Made by a program: the position numbers and the translations under genes. Under the pieces are notes generated by a model. That model was not told the DNA's origin. It did no database searches and saw only the letters and a program-made list of their open reading frames with translations. From a virus, in IMG/VR virus record IMGVR_UViG_3300030430_004599, positions 1 to 33,122 of that record: 33,122 nucleotides of DNA; one strand, written 5' to 3'. Below, in pieces: positions 1 through 22,341 of this stretch. Numbering within the stretch: the first letter of the stretch is position 1; the number at the start of each line of letters is the position of its first letter.

Positions 1-211
1 CCCGCCCCACCTGCCTTACCTTTCCGGGCCTTGCACCGCCCCGCCATACCGTCTGCTGCCAATCCACACCTGCCTCGCCGTGCCCAACAAAACCGTTGCT
101 CACCAAGCCTGGACAATCCCAGCCCTACCTGCCTTACCAGGCCATACCTGCTCGTGCCACAACATGACTTGCCGCAGCCCGCCTCAGCTGCCAAGCCAAA
201 CCTAACCCAAC
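1..211. repeat. Period-5 CC-rich repeat tract (NNNCC; GGNNN on minus strand)
   Basis: This non-coding, C-rich, degenerate repeat runs to the window edge, so its full length is unknown. CC dinucleotides keep a 5-base register in four blocks, each shifted by one base. They begin at 14, 19, 24, 29, 39, 44, 49, 59, 64 and 69; then 73, 78, 83, 93, 103, 108, 118, 123 and 128; then 132, 137, 142, 147, 157, 172 and 182; then 191, 196, 201, 206 and 211. The 11-mer cctgccttacc occurs at both 10-20 and 128-138, and gccatacc at 43-50 and 141-148. A 5-base period is incompatible with coding. The tract starts right at the stop codon of the leftward operon, so it would be transcribed as a GGNNN-repeat 3' tail. 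No hairpin terminator is visible in it. Function unknown. Confidence 0.85.
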
Positions 212-715
212 CTAAGCATCATTCAGATGATCTTTGATCGGGTCGAGCACACCGGCCAGCTCAGACAGCTGGTCGTATTTGTTGACGAACTGTTGCAGCT
301 CGCGCTTGGCAGTCGCCAGGATTTGTGCCCGGTATTCTGGATCCTTCATGGCTTCGACGGTGCTCACATACGATCGCACCGTTTTGCCCGCGTCGTTTTT
401 GTGAGCGACGCTCGTAAAGACCCGCAGTCGTTTGGGTTCGTACTCCTTGGGAACGTCTTGGGTGCAGACATACACAAGCGATCGCTTGATACGCTTCTCG
501 GTTTCAACGCGCTGCTGCGCAGCGGCGACAGAATCGTCCCACTCGAACTCGTTGTGCAACACAGAGTCCGGGCTCCTGGCGTGATCGACCAGTTTGCCGA
601 CCGGCGCCACCCCACCCCACTCTGCATTGAGCGATTCGATTTCCTGGAGAGCAAGGTTGGGGTCTGCCTTGAAGACAGACCCCTTTGCCCACTCAACGAT
701 GGTGCCGCCGCTCAC
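212..715 (-). CDS. Conserved phage protein with 'LHNEFEWDD' motif, unknown function
   Basis: This 167-aa soluble protein starts at GTG (713-715), overlapping the stop of the upstream gene as GTGA, so it is translationally coupled to the RAMP-like protein. Residues about 36-80 hold a motif pattern I recognise from many phage genomes: an Ala-rich 'DHARSPDS' stretch, then LHNEFEWDD, then a helical segment ending in RIKRSLV. Residues 83-115 look like beta strands, and residues 125-165 are a charged, helical tail. No enzymatic residues are recognised. The strict coupling suggests that it works with the upstream product. The gene ends against the period-5 tract. It could instead be a DNA-recombination accessory protein, since relatives often sit in early regions; this is inference. 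Confidence 0.85.
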   Translation of the reverse strand: MSGGTIVEWAKGSVFKADPNLALQEIESLNAEWGGVAPVGKLVDHARSPDSVLHNEFEWDDSVAAAQQRVETEKRIKRSLVYVCTQDVPKEYEPKRLRVFTSVAHKNDAGKTVRSYVSTVEAMKDPEYRAQILATAKRELQQFVNKYDQLSELAGVLDPIKDHLNDA

Positions 716-1323
716 GCGGCTTCTTCGAGAATGGCGAACTCGCGATCGAGTCTGAAGCGACCGAACTCACCACCCTTTTCTGGTCTCCACTCACCGAGTC
801 CGATACCAAAGCCAGCCCGCTCGATCAGATTCAAGATCGCCGATTGAGTCAGTGCCTTGGAGTCATACTCGAACTTGAGCGTCATCGCCCAGTTCGTGAA
901 CATCGGTCGATAGCGTAGATCGGTGGATCCTGATCCGACTCGCACTACGTCCTCCCGCATAACGGGCTCGTCAGTCTCCAATGCCACCAGGTTGTTTTCG
1001 AAGTCGTCGGGTCGAATGAACAGAGACTTCTTGAGGAGGGTCTTTTCCAAGCCGATGTCCTTGTGCGCTGCTCCGGTCAAGCATGCTTTAATTCCACCTG
1101 CCGGGAAGCCATAACGGCCGTCCGCCAATTTATACGATGCGTTACGAAACTCTTGTTCCGGTTCTCGAGCGTCTCGATTTTTGACGCGAATACCAGCGTG
1201 CTTGTCACGCATCATTTGCAACGCCTTTTCATCCCACTTGTGTTGAATGAATGGACTGGTGCCCTCGATTCGCACAGTCATGAGGGTCTTTTCGATCGGT
1301 TCCAAGGTAATGATGTTACCCAT
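712..1323 (-). CDS. Putative RAMP/Cas7-like RNA-binding protein, stand-alone phage form
   Basis: This 203-aa protein is preceded by an AGGAG site (minus strand, 1334-1330) 6 bases before its ATG. Three features recall the RAMP superfamily of ferredoxin-fold RNA-binding proteins (Cas5, Cas6 and Cas7 groups). The N-terminal strand MTVRIEGTSPF runs into a helix at residues 31-43. Residues 73-84, FPAGGIKACLTG, match the pattern of the 'PGSSLKGALR' segment. A C-terminal glycine-rich loop, GFGIGLGEWRP then GGEFGRF, spans residues 171-190 and resembles the RAMP G-loop. A middle motif, DLRYRPMFTNW (135-145), precedes a predicted strand. No cas gene or CRISPR array is present. I recognise the family as a recurrent phage protein without a firm function; the RAMP assignment is inference from motifs. 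Confidence 0.55.
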   Translation of the reverse strand: MGNIITLEPIEKTLMTVRIEGTSPFIQHKWDEKALQMMRDKHAGIRVKNRDAREPEQEFRNASYKLADGRYGFPAGGIKACLTGAAHKDIGLEKTLLKKSLFIRPDDFENNLVALETDEPVMREDVVRVGSGSTDLRYRPMFTNWAMTLKFEYDSKALTQSAILNLIERAGFGIGLGEWRPEKGGEFGRFRLDREFAILEEAA

Positions 1324-1463: not shown

Positions 1464-1492
1464 TTGCACAACGACACGGTGTTGTGCATAAT
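1464..1492 (+). promoter_or_regulatory. Sigma70-type rightward promoter
   Basis: The -35 box TTGCAC (1464-1469) and -10 box CATAAT (1487-1492) are separated by exactly 17 bases. Transcription would begin near 1499, about 35 bases before the first rightward gene. It is the best promoter match seen in the control region and probably drives the two small genes and the recombinase. Confidence 0.6.
1466..1487. promoter_or_regulatory. Inverted-repeat operator candidate inside the promoter
   Basis: The arms GCACAAC (1466-1472) and GTTGTGC (1481-1487) form a perfect 7-bp inverted repeat with an 8-base centre. It fills the space between the -35 and -10 boxes and touches both. The size and placement are typical of a binding site for a dimeric phage repressor, which would block RNA polymerase. 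No repressor gene is recognised here; the small downstream proteins are the only local candidates. Confidence 0.5.
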
Positions 1493-1780: not shown

Positions 1781-2010
1781 GCGTCGAAGCAAAAAAAGTG
1801 TTCTACAATCGAGTGCGTCGAACCTGCCTGAAGCATGGCATCGACATCGTGTACCATGGGATGCCGAAAGCTGTCATGGCAATCGAGCTGATCAAAGACG
1901 GTGAGGTGGTGTGCTCCGATCGTACGGACAACAACCGGCCGCTGGACATACCCTGGAAAATGTTCCACATGGAACTTTCTGAACTTGGTTACACAGGAGG
2001 CGTGAAATGA
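1777..2010 (+). CDS. Small unknown protein, coupled early gene
   Basis: This 77-aa product starts at GTG 1777, which overlaps the upstream stop (GTGA), so the two genes are co-translated. The sequence shows a basic N-terminal helix (KKVFYNRVRRTCLKHG), then alternating strands (IDIVYHGMPKAVMAIELIKDGEVV), resembling a small alpha-beta domain. It overlaps the ATG of the recombinase gene by 4 bases, which places it in the same transcript. A role as a recombination directionality factor or regulator is possible by position only. No family is recognised. Confidence 0.7.
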   Translation: MSVEAKKVFYNRVRRTCLKHGIDIVYHGMPKAVMAIELIKDGEVVCSDRTDNNRPLDIPWKMFHMELSELGYTGGVK

Positions 2011-2798
2011 GTGGACGACCGCTCAAGCAGATAAACAACATTTACGGCTATGTGCGAGTGTCGACTGACGAACAGGTCAAGTCTGGCATTTCGCTTGAGA
2101 CGCAAACGGAGCAGATCAACCAGTTTGTGCGTGACAAGTATAACCGAGAGGTCACGCAGTTCTTTAGCGACGAGGGCGTTTCTGGCACTCACGCTGTTGT
2201 TGATCGTCCCGCGAGTCGGGAGCTGACAGATGTGATCGACGAGCATGACGTCGTTGTTTGCACTCGATTAGACCGTTTGTCTCGCTCCACTTCTGACCTC
2301 TTGGGGTTGATCCCGGTCTTGCAGGAAATCGGCATCACGCTGTACTTCTGTGAACAATTCGGTGACATGCCGATCGTTTATCCAGGCGCTGGGCAATCGA
2401 AAGGCCTGGAGTCAAAGTTCGATATGAACTCAATGACGAATCAGATCATGATGATGGTCTTGTCGGCTGTAGCCGAGATTGAGCGCGCTACGATCAAGGA
2501 TCGGTTCGCAGCCGGTAAGCTCGACTGGGCTTCTCGCGGGTACGCGATCGGCGGTTCCGCTCCTTATGGCTACAAGCACGTCGAGGTGAAAACAGGCAAC
2601 AAGACGCGACAGTTCCTCGAAGAGGTGCCGGAAGAGCAGGAGATCTTGGAAGCGATCTACAAGCTTCACGATCGCGGACTTGGCCCGCGCAAGATAGCAA
2701 ACGAAATCAACAGTCTTTACGACGTCAAGCCCTTCACACACTCCAAGATTCAGCGCATCTTGGGCCGCAAATTCCAGGGTTTGCGTCAAGCAGCCTGA
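2007..2798 (+). CDS. Serine recombinase (resolvase/invertase family)
   Basis: This 263-aa site-specific DNA recombinase uses a catalytic serine to break and rejoin DNA. The resolvase domain begins at Y13-GYVRVSTDEQ; Ser19 is the nucleophile and Arg17 the conserved partner. The TRLDRLSRS block (86-94) carries the other active-site arginines. The long E helix region is about residues 140-175 (ending in VAEIERATIKDRFAAGK). Residues 180-260, starting at the G-SAPYGYK motif, are the start of a 'recombinase' DNA-binding domain. The protein is longer than Hin/Gin invertases (about 190 aa) and much shorter than large serine integrases (450 aa or more), and it lacks a zinc-ribbon domain. It could be an integrase for a temperate lifestyle, or an invertase acting on the adjacent tail genes. 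Confidence 0.92.
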   Translation: MSGRPLKQINNIYGYVRVSTDEQVKSGISLETQTEQINQFVRDKYNREVTQFFSDEGVSGTHAVVDRPASRELTDVIDEHDVVVCTRLDRLSRSTSDLLGLIPVLQEIGITLYFCEQFGDMPIVYPGAGQSKGLESKFDMNSMTNQIMMMVLSAVAEIERATIKDRFAAGKLDWASRGYAIGGSAPYGYKHVEVKTGNKTRQFLEEVPEEQEILEAIYKLHDRGLGPRKIANEINSLYDVKPFTHSKIQRILGRKFQGLRQAA

Positions 2799-20749: not shown

Positions 20750-21098
20750 GCCCCAGGGTGGTCTGAAAAAATGGTTCGGCAAGGGTAAGGGTGGCGACTG
20801 GGTAGACATTGGCGCCCCGAAAAAAGATGGCAAGTTTCAGTCCTGCGGTAGAGCTAAGGCTGAGGGGTCGAAACGCAAATACCCAAAATGTGTACCGCGA
20901 TCGACTGCGAAACAGATGACGAAAGGCGAGATCAAATCCGCAGTGACTCGCAAGCGGAAGAAGAAGCAGGGTGTTGGGGGCAAGCCAACCAACGTTAAAA
21001 CTTTCCTTGCCAATGGTGGCGCGGTGATGATCCAAGCGCGAGGGTGTGGTGCTATTATGCCCGAGAAACAAAAGATGACACGAGTGCCGAGGAGTTGA
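20742..21098 (+). CDS. Basic conserved protein, 'WVDIGAPKKDGKF' family, RGCGA tail
   Basis: This 118-aa, Lys-rich product starts at GTG 20742, overlapping the previous stop. Its core, GDWVDIGAPKKDGKFQSCGR (in part), followed by SKRKYPKCVPRSTAKQMTK and a Lys/Arg cluster RKRKKKQ, is a widespread family of marine phages and large algal viruses. Two cysteines (SCGR and KCVP) could bind metal. The final 27 residues, with VMIQARGCGAIMPEKQKM, repeat the previous protein's C-terminus. The shared tail suggests a common partner. It overlaps no gene downstream; the next ATG is 2 bases on. Confidence 0.78.
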   Translation: MAKPQGGLKKWFGKGKGGDWVDIGAPKKDGKFQSCGRAKAEGSKRKYPKCVPRSTAKQMTKGEIKSAVTRKRKKKQGVGGKPTNVKTFLANGGAVMIQARGCGAIMPEKQKMTRVPRS

Positions 21099-21100
21099 GC

Positions 21101-21643
21101 ATGAAAAGATCGGAGACCAAAAAGGCCGTCAAAGATTTCAAGGATCGTAGCCGTCGCACCATGCGGAAAGCCCCAGAGGCTCTCGGGAAAGAAACCGGCG
21201 CGATGCTCACCAAAAAAGAAATGGGCGAGGCGGTTCGAAGGATGCTCGGGAAGGAATCTGGAGCGGCGTTGTCTGAAAAGGATCTAGCAAGCTTAGGTTT
21301 GCGTGTCGATCCTCTCGATAGAATGCAAAGCGGAGGAGCTATGAAAAAGAAAAGAATGAATGCTAAAGGCATGATGGCTGGCGGGAAGATGAAGGCCAAA
21401 GGCATGAAGGCCGGAGGCAAGATGAAAGCGAAAGGCATGATGGCTGGCGGCAAAATGAAAGCCAAAGGCATGAAAGCCGGAGGCAAGATGCAGGCCAAAG
21501 GTATGGCGAAAGGCGGAAAGATGAAAGCCAAGGGCATGGCGAAAGGCGGAAAGATGACCACCAAGGGTTACGCAAAAGGCGGTGCAGCTGGCGGTATGAG
21601 AAAGCCTTCAAATAAAAATAGCGGATTGTATGGCCGCAGATAG
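21101..21643 (+). CDS. Lys/Gly/Met repeat protein
   Basis: The 180-aa product starts at ATG 21101, supported by GAGGAG (21089-21094) at 6 bases; a longer frame start at 21044 is not needed. Residues 1-75 form a charged helical domain (ETKKAVKDFKDRSRRTMRKA, LTKKEMGEAVRRML). From residue 87 seven 11-residue repeats follow, with consensus AKGM-x-x-GGKM-K, giving a highly basic tail. It ends MRKPSNKNSGLYGRR. Such Lys/Gly repeats occur in marine phage genes of unknown role; nucleic-acid condensation inside the head is a reasonable idea. Confidence 0.75.
   Translation: MKRSETKKAVKDFKDRSRRTMRKAPEALGKETGAMLTKKEMGEAVRRMLGKESGAALSEKDLASLGLRVDPLDRMQSGGAMKKKRMNAKGMMAGGKMKAKGMKAGGKMKAKGMMAGGKMKAKGMKAGGKMQAKGMAKGGKMKAKGMAKGGKMTTKGYAKGGAAGGMRKPSNKNSGLYGRR
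21332..21343 (+). promoter_or_regulatory. Internal Shine-Dalgarno plus ATG within the repeat gene
   Basis: GGAGGAG (21332-21338) lies just before an in-frame ATG (21341-21343) inside the 21101 gene. Initiation here would give a 100-aa product made only of the basic repeat domain (starts MKKKRMNAKG). The spacing from the GGAGG core is 4 bases, a bit short but workable. Whether it is used is unknown. Confidence 0.45.
21359..21589 (+). repeat. Seven 33-bp tandem repeats within the Lys/Gly gene
   Basis: Seven 33-base units encode 11 residues each, from N-A-K-G-M-M-A-G-G-K-M to T-T-K-G-Y-A-K-G-G-A-A. Units 1-4 alternate between MMAGG and MKAGG forms, and units 5-6 share MAKGG, so there is a higher-order pair pattern. 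The DNA copies are close, which suggests recent slippage or recombination. The copy number is likely to vary between relatives. Confidence 0.85.
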
Positions 21644-22341
21644 TGGCGTATCTGCAAAGCAACGTCCCTTACTTCAAGTGTTGGGTTCGTAGGGAGTACA
21701 CGCACAACCACGAGAAGTATCATGGCGAGTTTATTCACGCCATGGCGATTGCAGTCACGACGATGCCAACTCGTTGTCTGAGCTTCCAGGTCATTTTCAC
21801 CGGGGCTGAAACGTACGACGACGACAAAGAGCCAAACGTGCATGGCGGCGCTATGTGGGCTCGTATGCCCATAACAGCCTTAGTCGGTGATACTCCCCTA
21901 GAAGAGTGGCCAGAGCCAATGCCGGTTTGGGCGGCTCAACCTTGGGACTGCTCATCTCGGGATCATGCCGTCTATGTTTTGGATCGCTGCACGCCTTGTC
22001 CCTGGTTAGCCAAGATCGATGGCAAAATGTATCCAGCCAAGTATCTTTTCACGGTTGATTACACAAACAACGAAATCGCCGACGACCCAGCTCAGCATAA
22101 GCAGAGTCATGTGATGGAGCTGCTAGACGCGGGTGAGTGGACAGGAAACATAGTGGCGCTCCCTAATAACAGAGTCAGGGTTACACACCCAGCCTGGTTC
22201 GAAACCGGCGAGGGCGCTCCCGATTTCCGACCGTCCCAACATATCCATTACTCAAAGTCTGATTTAGATTACACTCTGGACGTGAACCAAGTGTTCGATA
22301 ATCTTTACGCGGAGACGAAGCGTGGCGGTAAGCGGAAGTAA
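21643..22341 (+). CDS. Conserved marine-phage protein, 'AYLQSNVP' family
   Basis: This 232-aa product starts at GTG 21643, overlapping the TAG stop by one base. Its opening, AYLQSNVPYFKCWVRREY (residues 2-19), is the signature of a family widespread in marine phages, which I know only as a conserved protein. Further shared elements are HGEFIHAMAIAVTTMPTR, MPITALV, the cysteine-bearing RCTPCPWL and MYPAKYLFTVDYT. Several histidines and cysteines (KCWV, HNHEKYHGEF, DCSSRDH, RCTPCP) could form metal sites. The gene lies among head-tail genes, so a structural role is likely. Confidence 0.8.
   Translation: MAYLQSNVPYFKCWVRREYTHNHEKYHGEFIHAMAIAVTTMPTRCLSFQVIFTGAETYDDDKEPNVHGGAMWARMPITALVGDTPLEEWPEPMPVWAAQPWDCSSRDHAVYVLDRCTPCPWLAKIDGKMYPAKYLFTVDYTNNEIADDPAQHKQSHVMELLDAGEWTGNIVALPNNRVRVTHPAWFETGEGAPDFRPSQHIHYSKSDLDYTLDVNQVFDNLYAETKRGGKRK

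What the first reader, a model, noticed from the sequence alone, without database searches (positions are those of the whole stretch)
1..1323. Possible new system: RAMP-like gene, coupled partner and GGNNN-repeat RNA
The leftward operon places a RAMP-like gene, a GTGA-coupled partner and a period-5 GGNNN tail in a single likely transcript. Cas7-type proteins polymerise along RNA at a fixed base step (6 in known effectors). A 5-base lattice beside a RAMP-like gene suggests that the protein could coat its own repeat RNA, as a decoy, a regulator or an anti-defence element. This link is a hypothesis.
Basis: inference. Interest (0 to 1): 0.8.

Follow-up and report, generated by a model that had tools for sequence, protein, structure and literature searches.

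The report
Phage VIPR locus with guide-RNA array
This end of a bacterial-virus genome carries a VIPR locus, a small RNA-guided system published in 2026 that viruses appear to use to switch off rival viruses; here its guide RNAs sit in one continuous array, separated by four-base GGCA marks.

Summary
The 203-aa protein matches the solved "SUSP1 Vipr protein" (36PP, E 4e-10), and its AlphaFold model matches Csm3/Cas7. VIPR (PMC13142463) consists of Vipr, a vap gene and vrRNAs of GGY/NN pentamers, whose NN pairs read DNA with a 1-nt skip.

The minus-strand tract (1-212) is not a plain GGNNN repeat. It is a guide array: three complete 59-nt elements of eleven G-G-Y-N-N pentamers plus GGCA, cut off by the contig end. 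Of 54 related viral loci, 52 have such arrays on the vipr strand and 51 carry the partner gene.

The window's clade (phrog_15946 partner, contiguous GGCA-separated arrays) is split from four sampled SUSP1-like VIPRs (discrete vrRNAs, unrelated partners) by a fully supported branch. It is therefore a VIPR member, but not type II. Whether the preprint's supplement already describes GGCA punctuation could not be checked.

No target of the window's guides was found. One Streptomyces-prophage guide matched a phage exonuclease gene at 22/24 coded bases, skips at wobble positions (chance about 0.05 for that search). The mechanism here rests on homology and anatomy.

The parts
712..1323 (-). vipr gene: 203-aa single-RRM RAMP protein (phrog_4652), with conserved GxGxWRPEKGGExGRF segment
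   Evidence: phmmer to 36PP SUSP1 Vipr E 4.4e-10; profile E 8e-14; AF2 model pLDDT 89, Foldseek top hits Csm3/Cas7; dN/dS about 0.03 against L002
212..715 (-). vap-like accessory gene: 167 aa, phrog_15946, coupled to vipr by GTGA; function unknown
   Evidence: phrog_15946 E 1e-15; relative next to vipr in 51/54 loci; AF2 model pLDDT 92 with no significant PDB match; not homologous to SUSP1 vap1
189..212 (-). start of the vrRNA array (leader): GGTTG GGTTA GGTTT GGCTT GGCA, beginning at the vap stop codon
   Evidence: sequence; similar start in L002, L003, L004
130..188 (-). array element e1 (59 nt): 11 pentamers + GGCA; NN = GA GG GC AA AT GT AC CA AT CT AA
   Evidence: orthologous elements in L002 and L003
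71..129 (-). array element e2 (59 nt): NN = AG TG TT CA TT GA AC TT TG AC GA; absent from L002 and L003 at this place (whole-element gain or loss)
12..70 (-). array element e3 (59 nt): NN = GT TT AG AC AT GG GG AA CC AA AA; orthologue is the second full element in L002 and L003
1..11 (-). fourth element, cut off by the contig end
1465..1488 (.). 24-bp inverted repeat TGCACAAC-N8-GTTGTGCA in the divergent intergenic region upstream of vipr; candidate operator
   Evidence: a similar sequence follows the array in L002

Best explanation
It is a VIPR system. Likely working: the vipr-vap operon is transcribed leftward into the array. Vipr subunits bind the RNA at one per pentamer, gripping GGY and displaying NN. 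The GGCA tetramers break the 5-nt register and so divide the array into separate 11-pentamer guides, either by stopping the filament or by marking processing sites. Each RNP pairs its NN dinucleotides with double-stranded DNA, skipping one target base between pairs, and blocks transcription of a gene of a competing phage or prophage. The partner protein assists, perhaps by binding DNA. Shown here: gene homology, fold, array anatomy, co-occurrence and purifying selection. Taken from the published homologue: RNA binding, the 1-nt-skip code and repression. Inferred: the role of GGCA, the function of the partner, and that this copy works.
For: Homology to the solved SUSP1 Vipr and Cas7/Csm3 fold. 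GGYNN array on the vipr strand in 52 of 54 relatives: 141 dense regions on that strand against 2 on the other. Partner gene in 51 of 54. Array statistics over 4596 pentamers: G 94%, G 80%, C+T 92%, then two mixed positions; 402 of the tetramers are GGCA (the parser favours GGCA, but the raw sequence shows it too). The window tract far exceeds shuffles. Elements turn over as whole GGCA-to-GGCA units: e2 is present or absent between loci with 98%-identical vipr. vipr and vap are under purifying selection. VIPR biochemistry comes from PMC13142463. One Streptomyces-prophage guide of the same clade matches a phage exonuclease gene at 22/24 bases with the skipped bases at wobble positions; chance expectation is 0.046 for that search.
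Against: No target was found for the window's three guides. A second Streptomyces guide gave nothing. In 1.3 Mb of related contigs the 1-nt skip was only slightly richer in matches than the other spacings or the reversed control. In orthologous elements the NN positions are conserved about as well as GGY, not clearly better. No RNA or binding data exist for this clade. The partner has no recognisable fold. The array is truncated.
Confidence: 0.93

Rival explanations
1. The repeat RNA is a decoy or anti-defence RNA (like anti-CRISPR RNA mimics): Vipr coats it and the complex titrates a host defence protein; NN is filler.
For: The RAMP fold and phage location fit an anti-CRISPR origin.
Against: Elements are highly diverse in NN between phages, yet orthologous elements keep their NN about as well as GGY, which filler would not. 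Elements turn over individually like spacers. The homologous SUSP1 system is programmable by NN alone (PMC13142463).
Confidence: 0.04
2. The tract is a regulatory or attenuation leader, or an unrelated DNA repeat beside the genes (packaging, recombination, low-complexity DNA).
For: The tract sits at the very end of the contig, directly downstream of the operon.
Against: Arrays lie beside vipr in diverse phages, almost only on its strand, upstream, downstream or between the genes, with a shared unit and separator.
Confidence: 0.02
3. The tract codes for a repetitive peptide.
For: Open frames cross arrays in some loci.
Against: The 59-nt element (55 + 4) is not a multiple of 3, so the reading frame changes at every GGCA.
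Confidence: 0.01

Closest known systems
VIPR type II of Escherichia phage SUSP1 (PMC13142463; PDB 36PP)
   Same: Homologous Vipr (E 4e-10), adjacent second gene, GGY/NN pentamer RNA on the same strand, phage-borne.
   Different: SUSP1 has four discrete vrRNAs of 12-17 units by my parser, each ending in a fixed sequence, without GGCA tetramers. Its vap1 is not homologous to the window's partner. Long, fully supported tree branch between them.
Other VIPR types in PMC13142463, including 'staggered arrays with overlapping vrRNAs'
   Same: The paper reports staggered and other arrays and six vap families among seven types; the window probably belongs to one of these.
   Different: Not resolvable: the supplement was not readable here, so type number, vap number and whether GGCA is described are unknown.
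Class 1 CRISPR effectors (Csm3/Cas7 backbone)
   Same: RAMP fold; polymerises along a guide RNA; periodic non-pairing bases.
   Different: No CRISPR repeat-spacer array and no cas operon seen; 5-nt lattice instead of 6; guide encoded only in the NN pairs.
phrog_4652 / phrog_15946 neighbours in mycobacteriophage Saal, Gordonia phages ODay and UmaThurman, cyanophage Cy-LDV1 and Rhodoplanes plasmid 1
   Same: Vipr plus the same partner family plus GGCA-separated arrays.
   Different: Annotated as hypothetical proteins; arrays may lie upstream, between or downstream of the genes.

Membership tests
VIPR | RAMP protein of the Vipr family (RRM core, G-loop, thumb) | tested here: met
   phmmer 36PP E 4.4e-10; profile E 8e-14; Foldseek to Csm3/Cas7. 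The thumb was not examined separately.
VIPR | vrRNA of alternating GGY/NN motifs, 9-16 repeats | tested here: met
   39 pentamers in the window, 11 per element; 4596 pentamers in the relatives, usual element 8-13.
VIPR | minimal locus with an accessory vap gene beside vipr | tested here: met
   Partner coupled by GTGA; family present in 51/54 loci. Its identity with a published vap family is not testable here.
VIPR | encoded mainly by phages and proviruses | tested here: met
   Window has terminase, portal and head genes; relatives are phages, prophages and phage-like plasmids.
VIPR | noncontiguous DNA recognition with a 1-nt skip | tested here: inconclusive
   No target for the window's guides; one suggestive 22/24 target for a Streptomyces relative.
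VIPR | vrRNA expressed and bound by Vipr | not testable with these tools
   Needs sRNA-seq and pull-down.
VIPR type II (SUSP1/P. fulva clade) | vap1 family accessory protein | tested here: not met
   No similarity between the partner profile and SUSP1 vap1.
VIPR type II (SUSP1/P. fulva clade) | separate vrRNAs with a fixed, structured 3' tail | tested here: not met
   Elements abut with only GGCA between them; single elements fold no better than shuffles; SUSP1 control shows the discrete form.
Class 1 CRISPR-Cas | CRISPR repeat-spacer array with cas genes | tested here: not met
   No Cas match for either gene in NCBIfam or PADLOC; no tandem repeat of CRISPR form in the window. The other genes of the window were not all scanned for Cas families.

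The most novel reading that the evidence does not exclude
The GGCA tetramer is a punctuation mark: a one-base break in the 5-nt lattice ends each Vipr filament (or directs cleavage) and so lets one long transcript carry many guides without separate promoters or tails. This would be an array logic different from both type II vrRNAs and CRISPR, with whole elements gained and lost like spacers and tied to the phrog_15946 partner.
Probability: 0.35. Interest if true: 0.65.

Novelty: new member of a known kind. Interest (0 to 1): 0.5.

Why it matters
VIPR is proposed as an ancestor of CRISPR effectors and reads DNA by a gapped code. This locus belongs to a large clade outside the characterised type II, found in environmental viruses, Mycobacterium and Gordonia phages, a cyanophage and a Streptomyces prophage. 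Its arrays carry many guides in what looks like one transcript, up to more than 140 pentamers in one array (L020). If GGCA delimits guides, guide boundaries can be read from sequence alone, so targets could be predicted across many phages and element turnover between near-identical phages could be measured as a record of phage-phage conflict.

Tried and rejected
1) Pfam, NCBIfam and PADLOC gave no usable name for either protein. 2) Target search in viral contigs with the e1 core (16 bases) gave 15 hits in unrelated ORFs: chance. A shared motif GAKIVT at first looked like one gene family, but the pattern itself forces it. 3) e2 (18 bases) gave one hit, in an AT-rich contig, without support from the flanking units; e3 gave none; guides shared by several relatives gave none. 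4) All guides against 1.3 Mb of related contigs: a 16/16 match (L042 guide to L020:2988) lies in a terminase-like gene with the skips at codon position 1, not wobble, so chance is likely; 23 strong matches with a 3-nt skip were not inspected and are assumed to be unmasked array sequence. 5) Claim that NN is better conserved than GGY: the first count was biased by selecting pairs on NN; on hand-picked orthologous pairs the positions change at similar rates, and the best single pair (L009/L010) is not significant (P 0.06). 6) PDB and viral fold searches gave no function for the partner. 7) Host of the window phage: only weak terminase similarity to two phages; host unknown.

Full report
WHAT IS THERE. 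The window is a linear 33,122-bp IMG/VR record with terminase, portal and head genes. Two genes run leftward from 1323: a 203-aa ORF (712-1323) and a 167-aa ORF (212-715) that starts on GTG within the overlap GTGA. Directly at the second stop codon, on the same strand, begins a tract that runs to the contig end (212 to 1). Parsed as a lattice it reads GGTTG GGTTA GGTTT GGCTT [GGCA], then three elements of exactly 59 nt (11 pentamers + GGCA) at 188-130, 129-71 and 70-12, then a cut element. In the 39 pentamers position 1 is G in 36, position 2 is G in 31, position 3 is C or T in 33; positions 4 and 5 are mixed. The lattice score is 81.7, against 18.2 for the best of 500 dinucleotide shuffles of the tract and 11.2 for the other strand of the window.

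WHAT IT IS. The 203-aa protein matches one PDB sequence, 36PP 'SUSP1 Vipr protein' (E 4.4e-10; profile 8e-14). Its AlphaFold model (pLDDT 89) matches Csm3/Cas7 subunits (79 hits below 1e-3, best 50 listed). Vipr is the RAMP of VIPR, described in PMC13142463 (first posted 27 April 2026): a Vipr protein, an accessory vap gene and vrRNAs of alternating GGY/NN. The NN pairs recognise double-stranded DNA with one skipped base between them; SUSP1 vrRNAs repress transcription and many natural targets lie in competing phages and satellites. Seven types are described, including some with staggered arrays.

CO-OCCURRENCE. A viral-contig scan gave 54 loci encoding relatives (30-98% identity). Fifty-two have dense GGY arrays on the vipr strand (141 regions against 2 on the other strand). 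One exception is cut at the contig end just after vipr (L033); the other (L053) has only a weak array. A relative of the 167-aa partner is present in 51. Over 4596 pentamers the consensus is G(94%) G(80%, T 14%) Y(92%) N N; 402 of the roughly 450 tetramers are GGCA; most elements have 8-13 pentamers. The parser gives GGCA a higher score than other tetramers, so that fraction is an upper reading, but the unparsed sequence shows the same recurring AGGCAGG junction. Arrays lie downstream, upstream or between the genes.

A CLADE DIFFERENT FROM THE CHARACTERISED TYPE. As a control the same parser was run on SUSP1: four discrete runs of 12-17 units, no GGCA, each ending in a fixed sequence. LESphi2, Medea1 and MakoManhole look the same, and their partner proteins do not match the window's partner family. 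Saal, ODay, UmaThurman, Cy-LDV1 and a Rhodoplanes plasmid have the window's partner family and GGCA-separated arrays. A Vipr tree separates the two sets by a 100/100 branch (only four discrete-type rows were sampled). So the window is a VIPR, but not type II. Which published type it is, and whether GGCA is already described, could not be read from the main text.

HOW IT PROBABLY WORKS. From homology: Vipr polymerises on the RNA, holds GGY and shows NN; the complex pairs with DNA by NNxNNx and represses transcription. From anatomy: GGCA is the one place where the 5-nt step breaks, and elements are gained or lost from GGCA to GGCA. For example e2 is present in the window but absent from L002 and L003, whose Vipr is 98% identical. 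I infer that GGCA separates guides. The partner is under purifying selection (dN/dS about 0.08; vipr about 0.03) and has a confident model, but no fold match; a helper role is a guess from the other vap genes.

TARGETS. None of the three guides of the window has a credible target in the viral contigs or, for e2, in 47 related contigs. The full guide set against 1.3 Mb of related contigs gave no clear signal. One of two Streptomyces-prophage guides tested on 296 Streptomyces genomes hit a phage exonuclease gene (phrog_1674 E 1e-51; Cas4-domain exonuclease E 1e-8) at 22 of 24 bases, with the skips at wobble positions; chance expectation 0.046. The other gave nothing. This is suggestive only.

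VERDICT. Novelty lies only in the member, and possibly in the GGCA-separated array.

Noticed in passing
window 1465-1488: Perfect 8-bp inverted repeat with 8-bp spacer (TGCACAACGACACGGTGTTGTGCA) in the divergent region between vipr and the rightward genes; the only copy in the window. A similar sequence follows the array in L002. Candidate operator.
   Followed up: partly
window 2007-2798: 263-aa serine recombinase (Resolvase domain E 3e-28, only a weak start of the Recombinase domain) next to the VIPR locus; shorter than typical large serine integrases.
   Followed up: partly
window 21351-21582: 33-nt tandem repeat (about 6 copies) inside the ORF 21044-21643, giving a repetitive Lys/Ala/Gly/Met protein; no Pfam match.
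   Followed up: no
window 21643-22341: Match to phrog_3704, named ferredoxin (E 2e-28), an auxiliary gene among the structural genes; no Pfam match.
   Followed up: no
L020 4613-7271: Relative with three arrays (143, 53 and 131 paired GGY) interleaved with vipr and two nearly identical copies of the partner gene, suggesting duplication of array plus partner.
   Followed up: partly
L142 2606-2915 (Pseudomonas phage LESphi2): A phage of P. aeruginosa LESB58 carries a Vipr homologue annotated hypothetical, with three discrete vrRNA-like runs upstream.
   Followed up: partly
L132 / L042: Streptomyces sp. WAC 01529 prophage VIPR with about 16 elements in arrays on both sides of vipr; two elements share the core CT AA CC CC AA CT.
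   Followed up: partly
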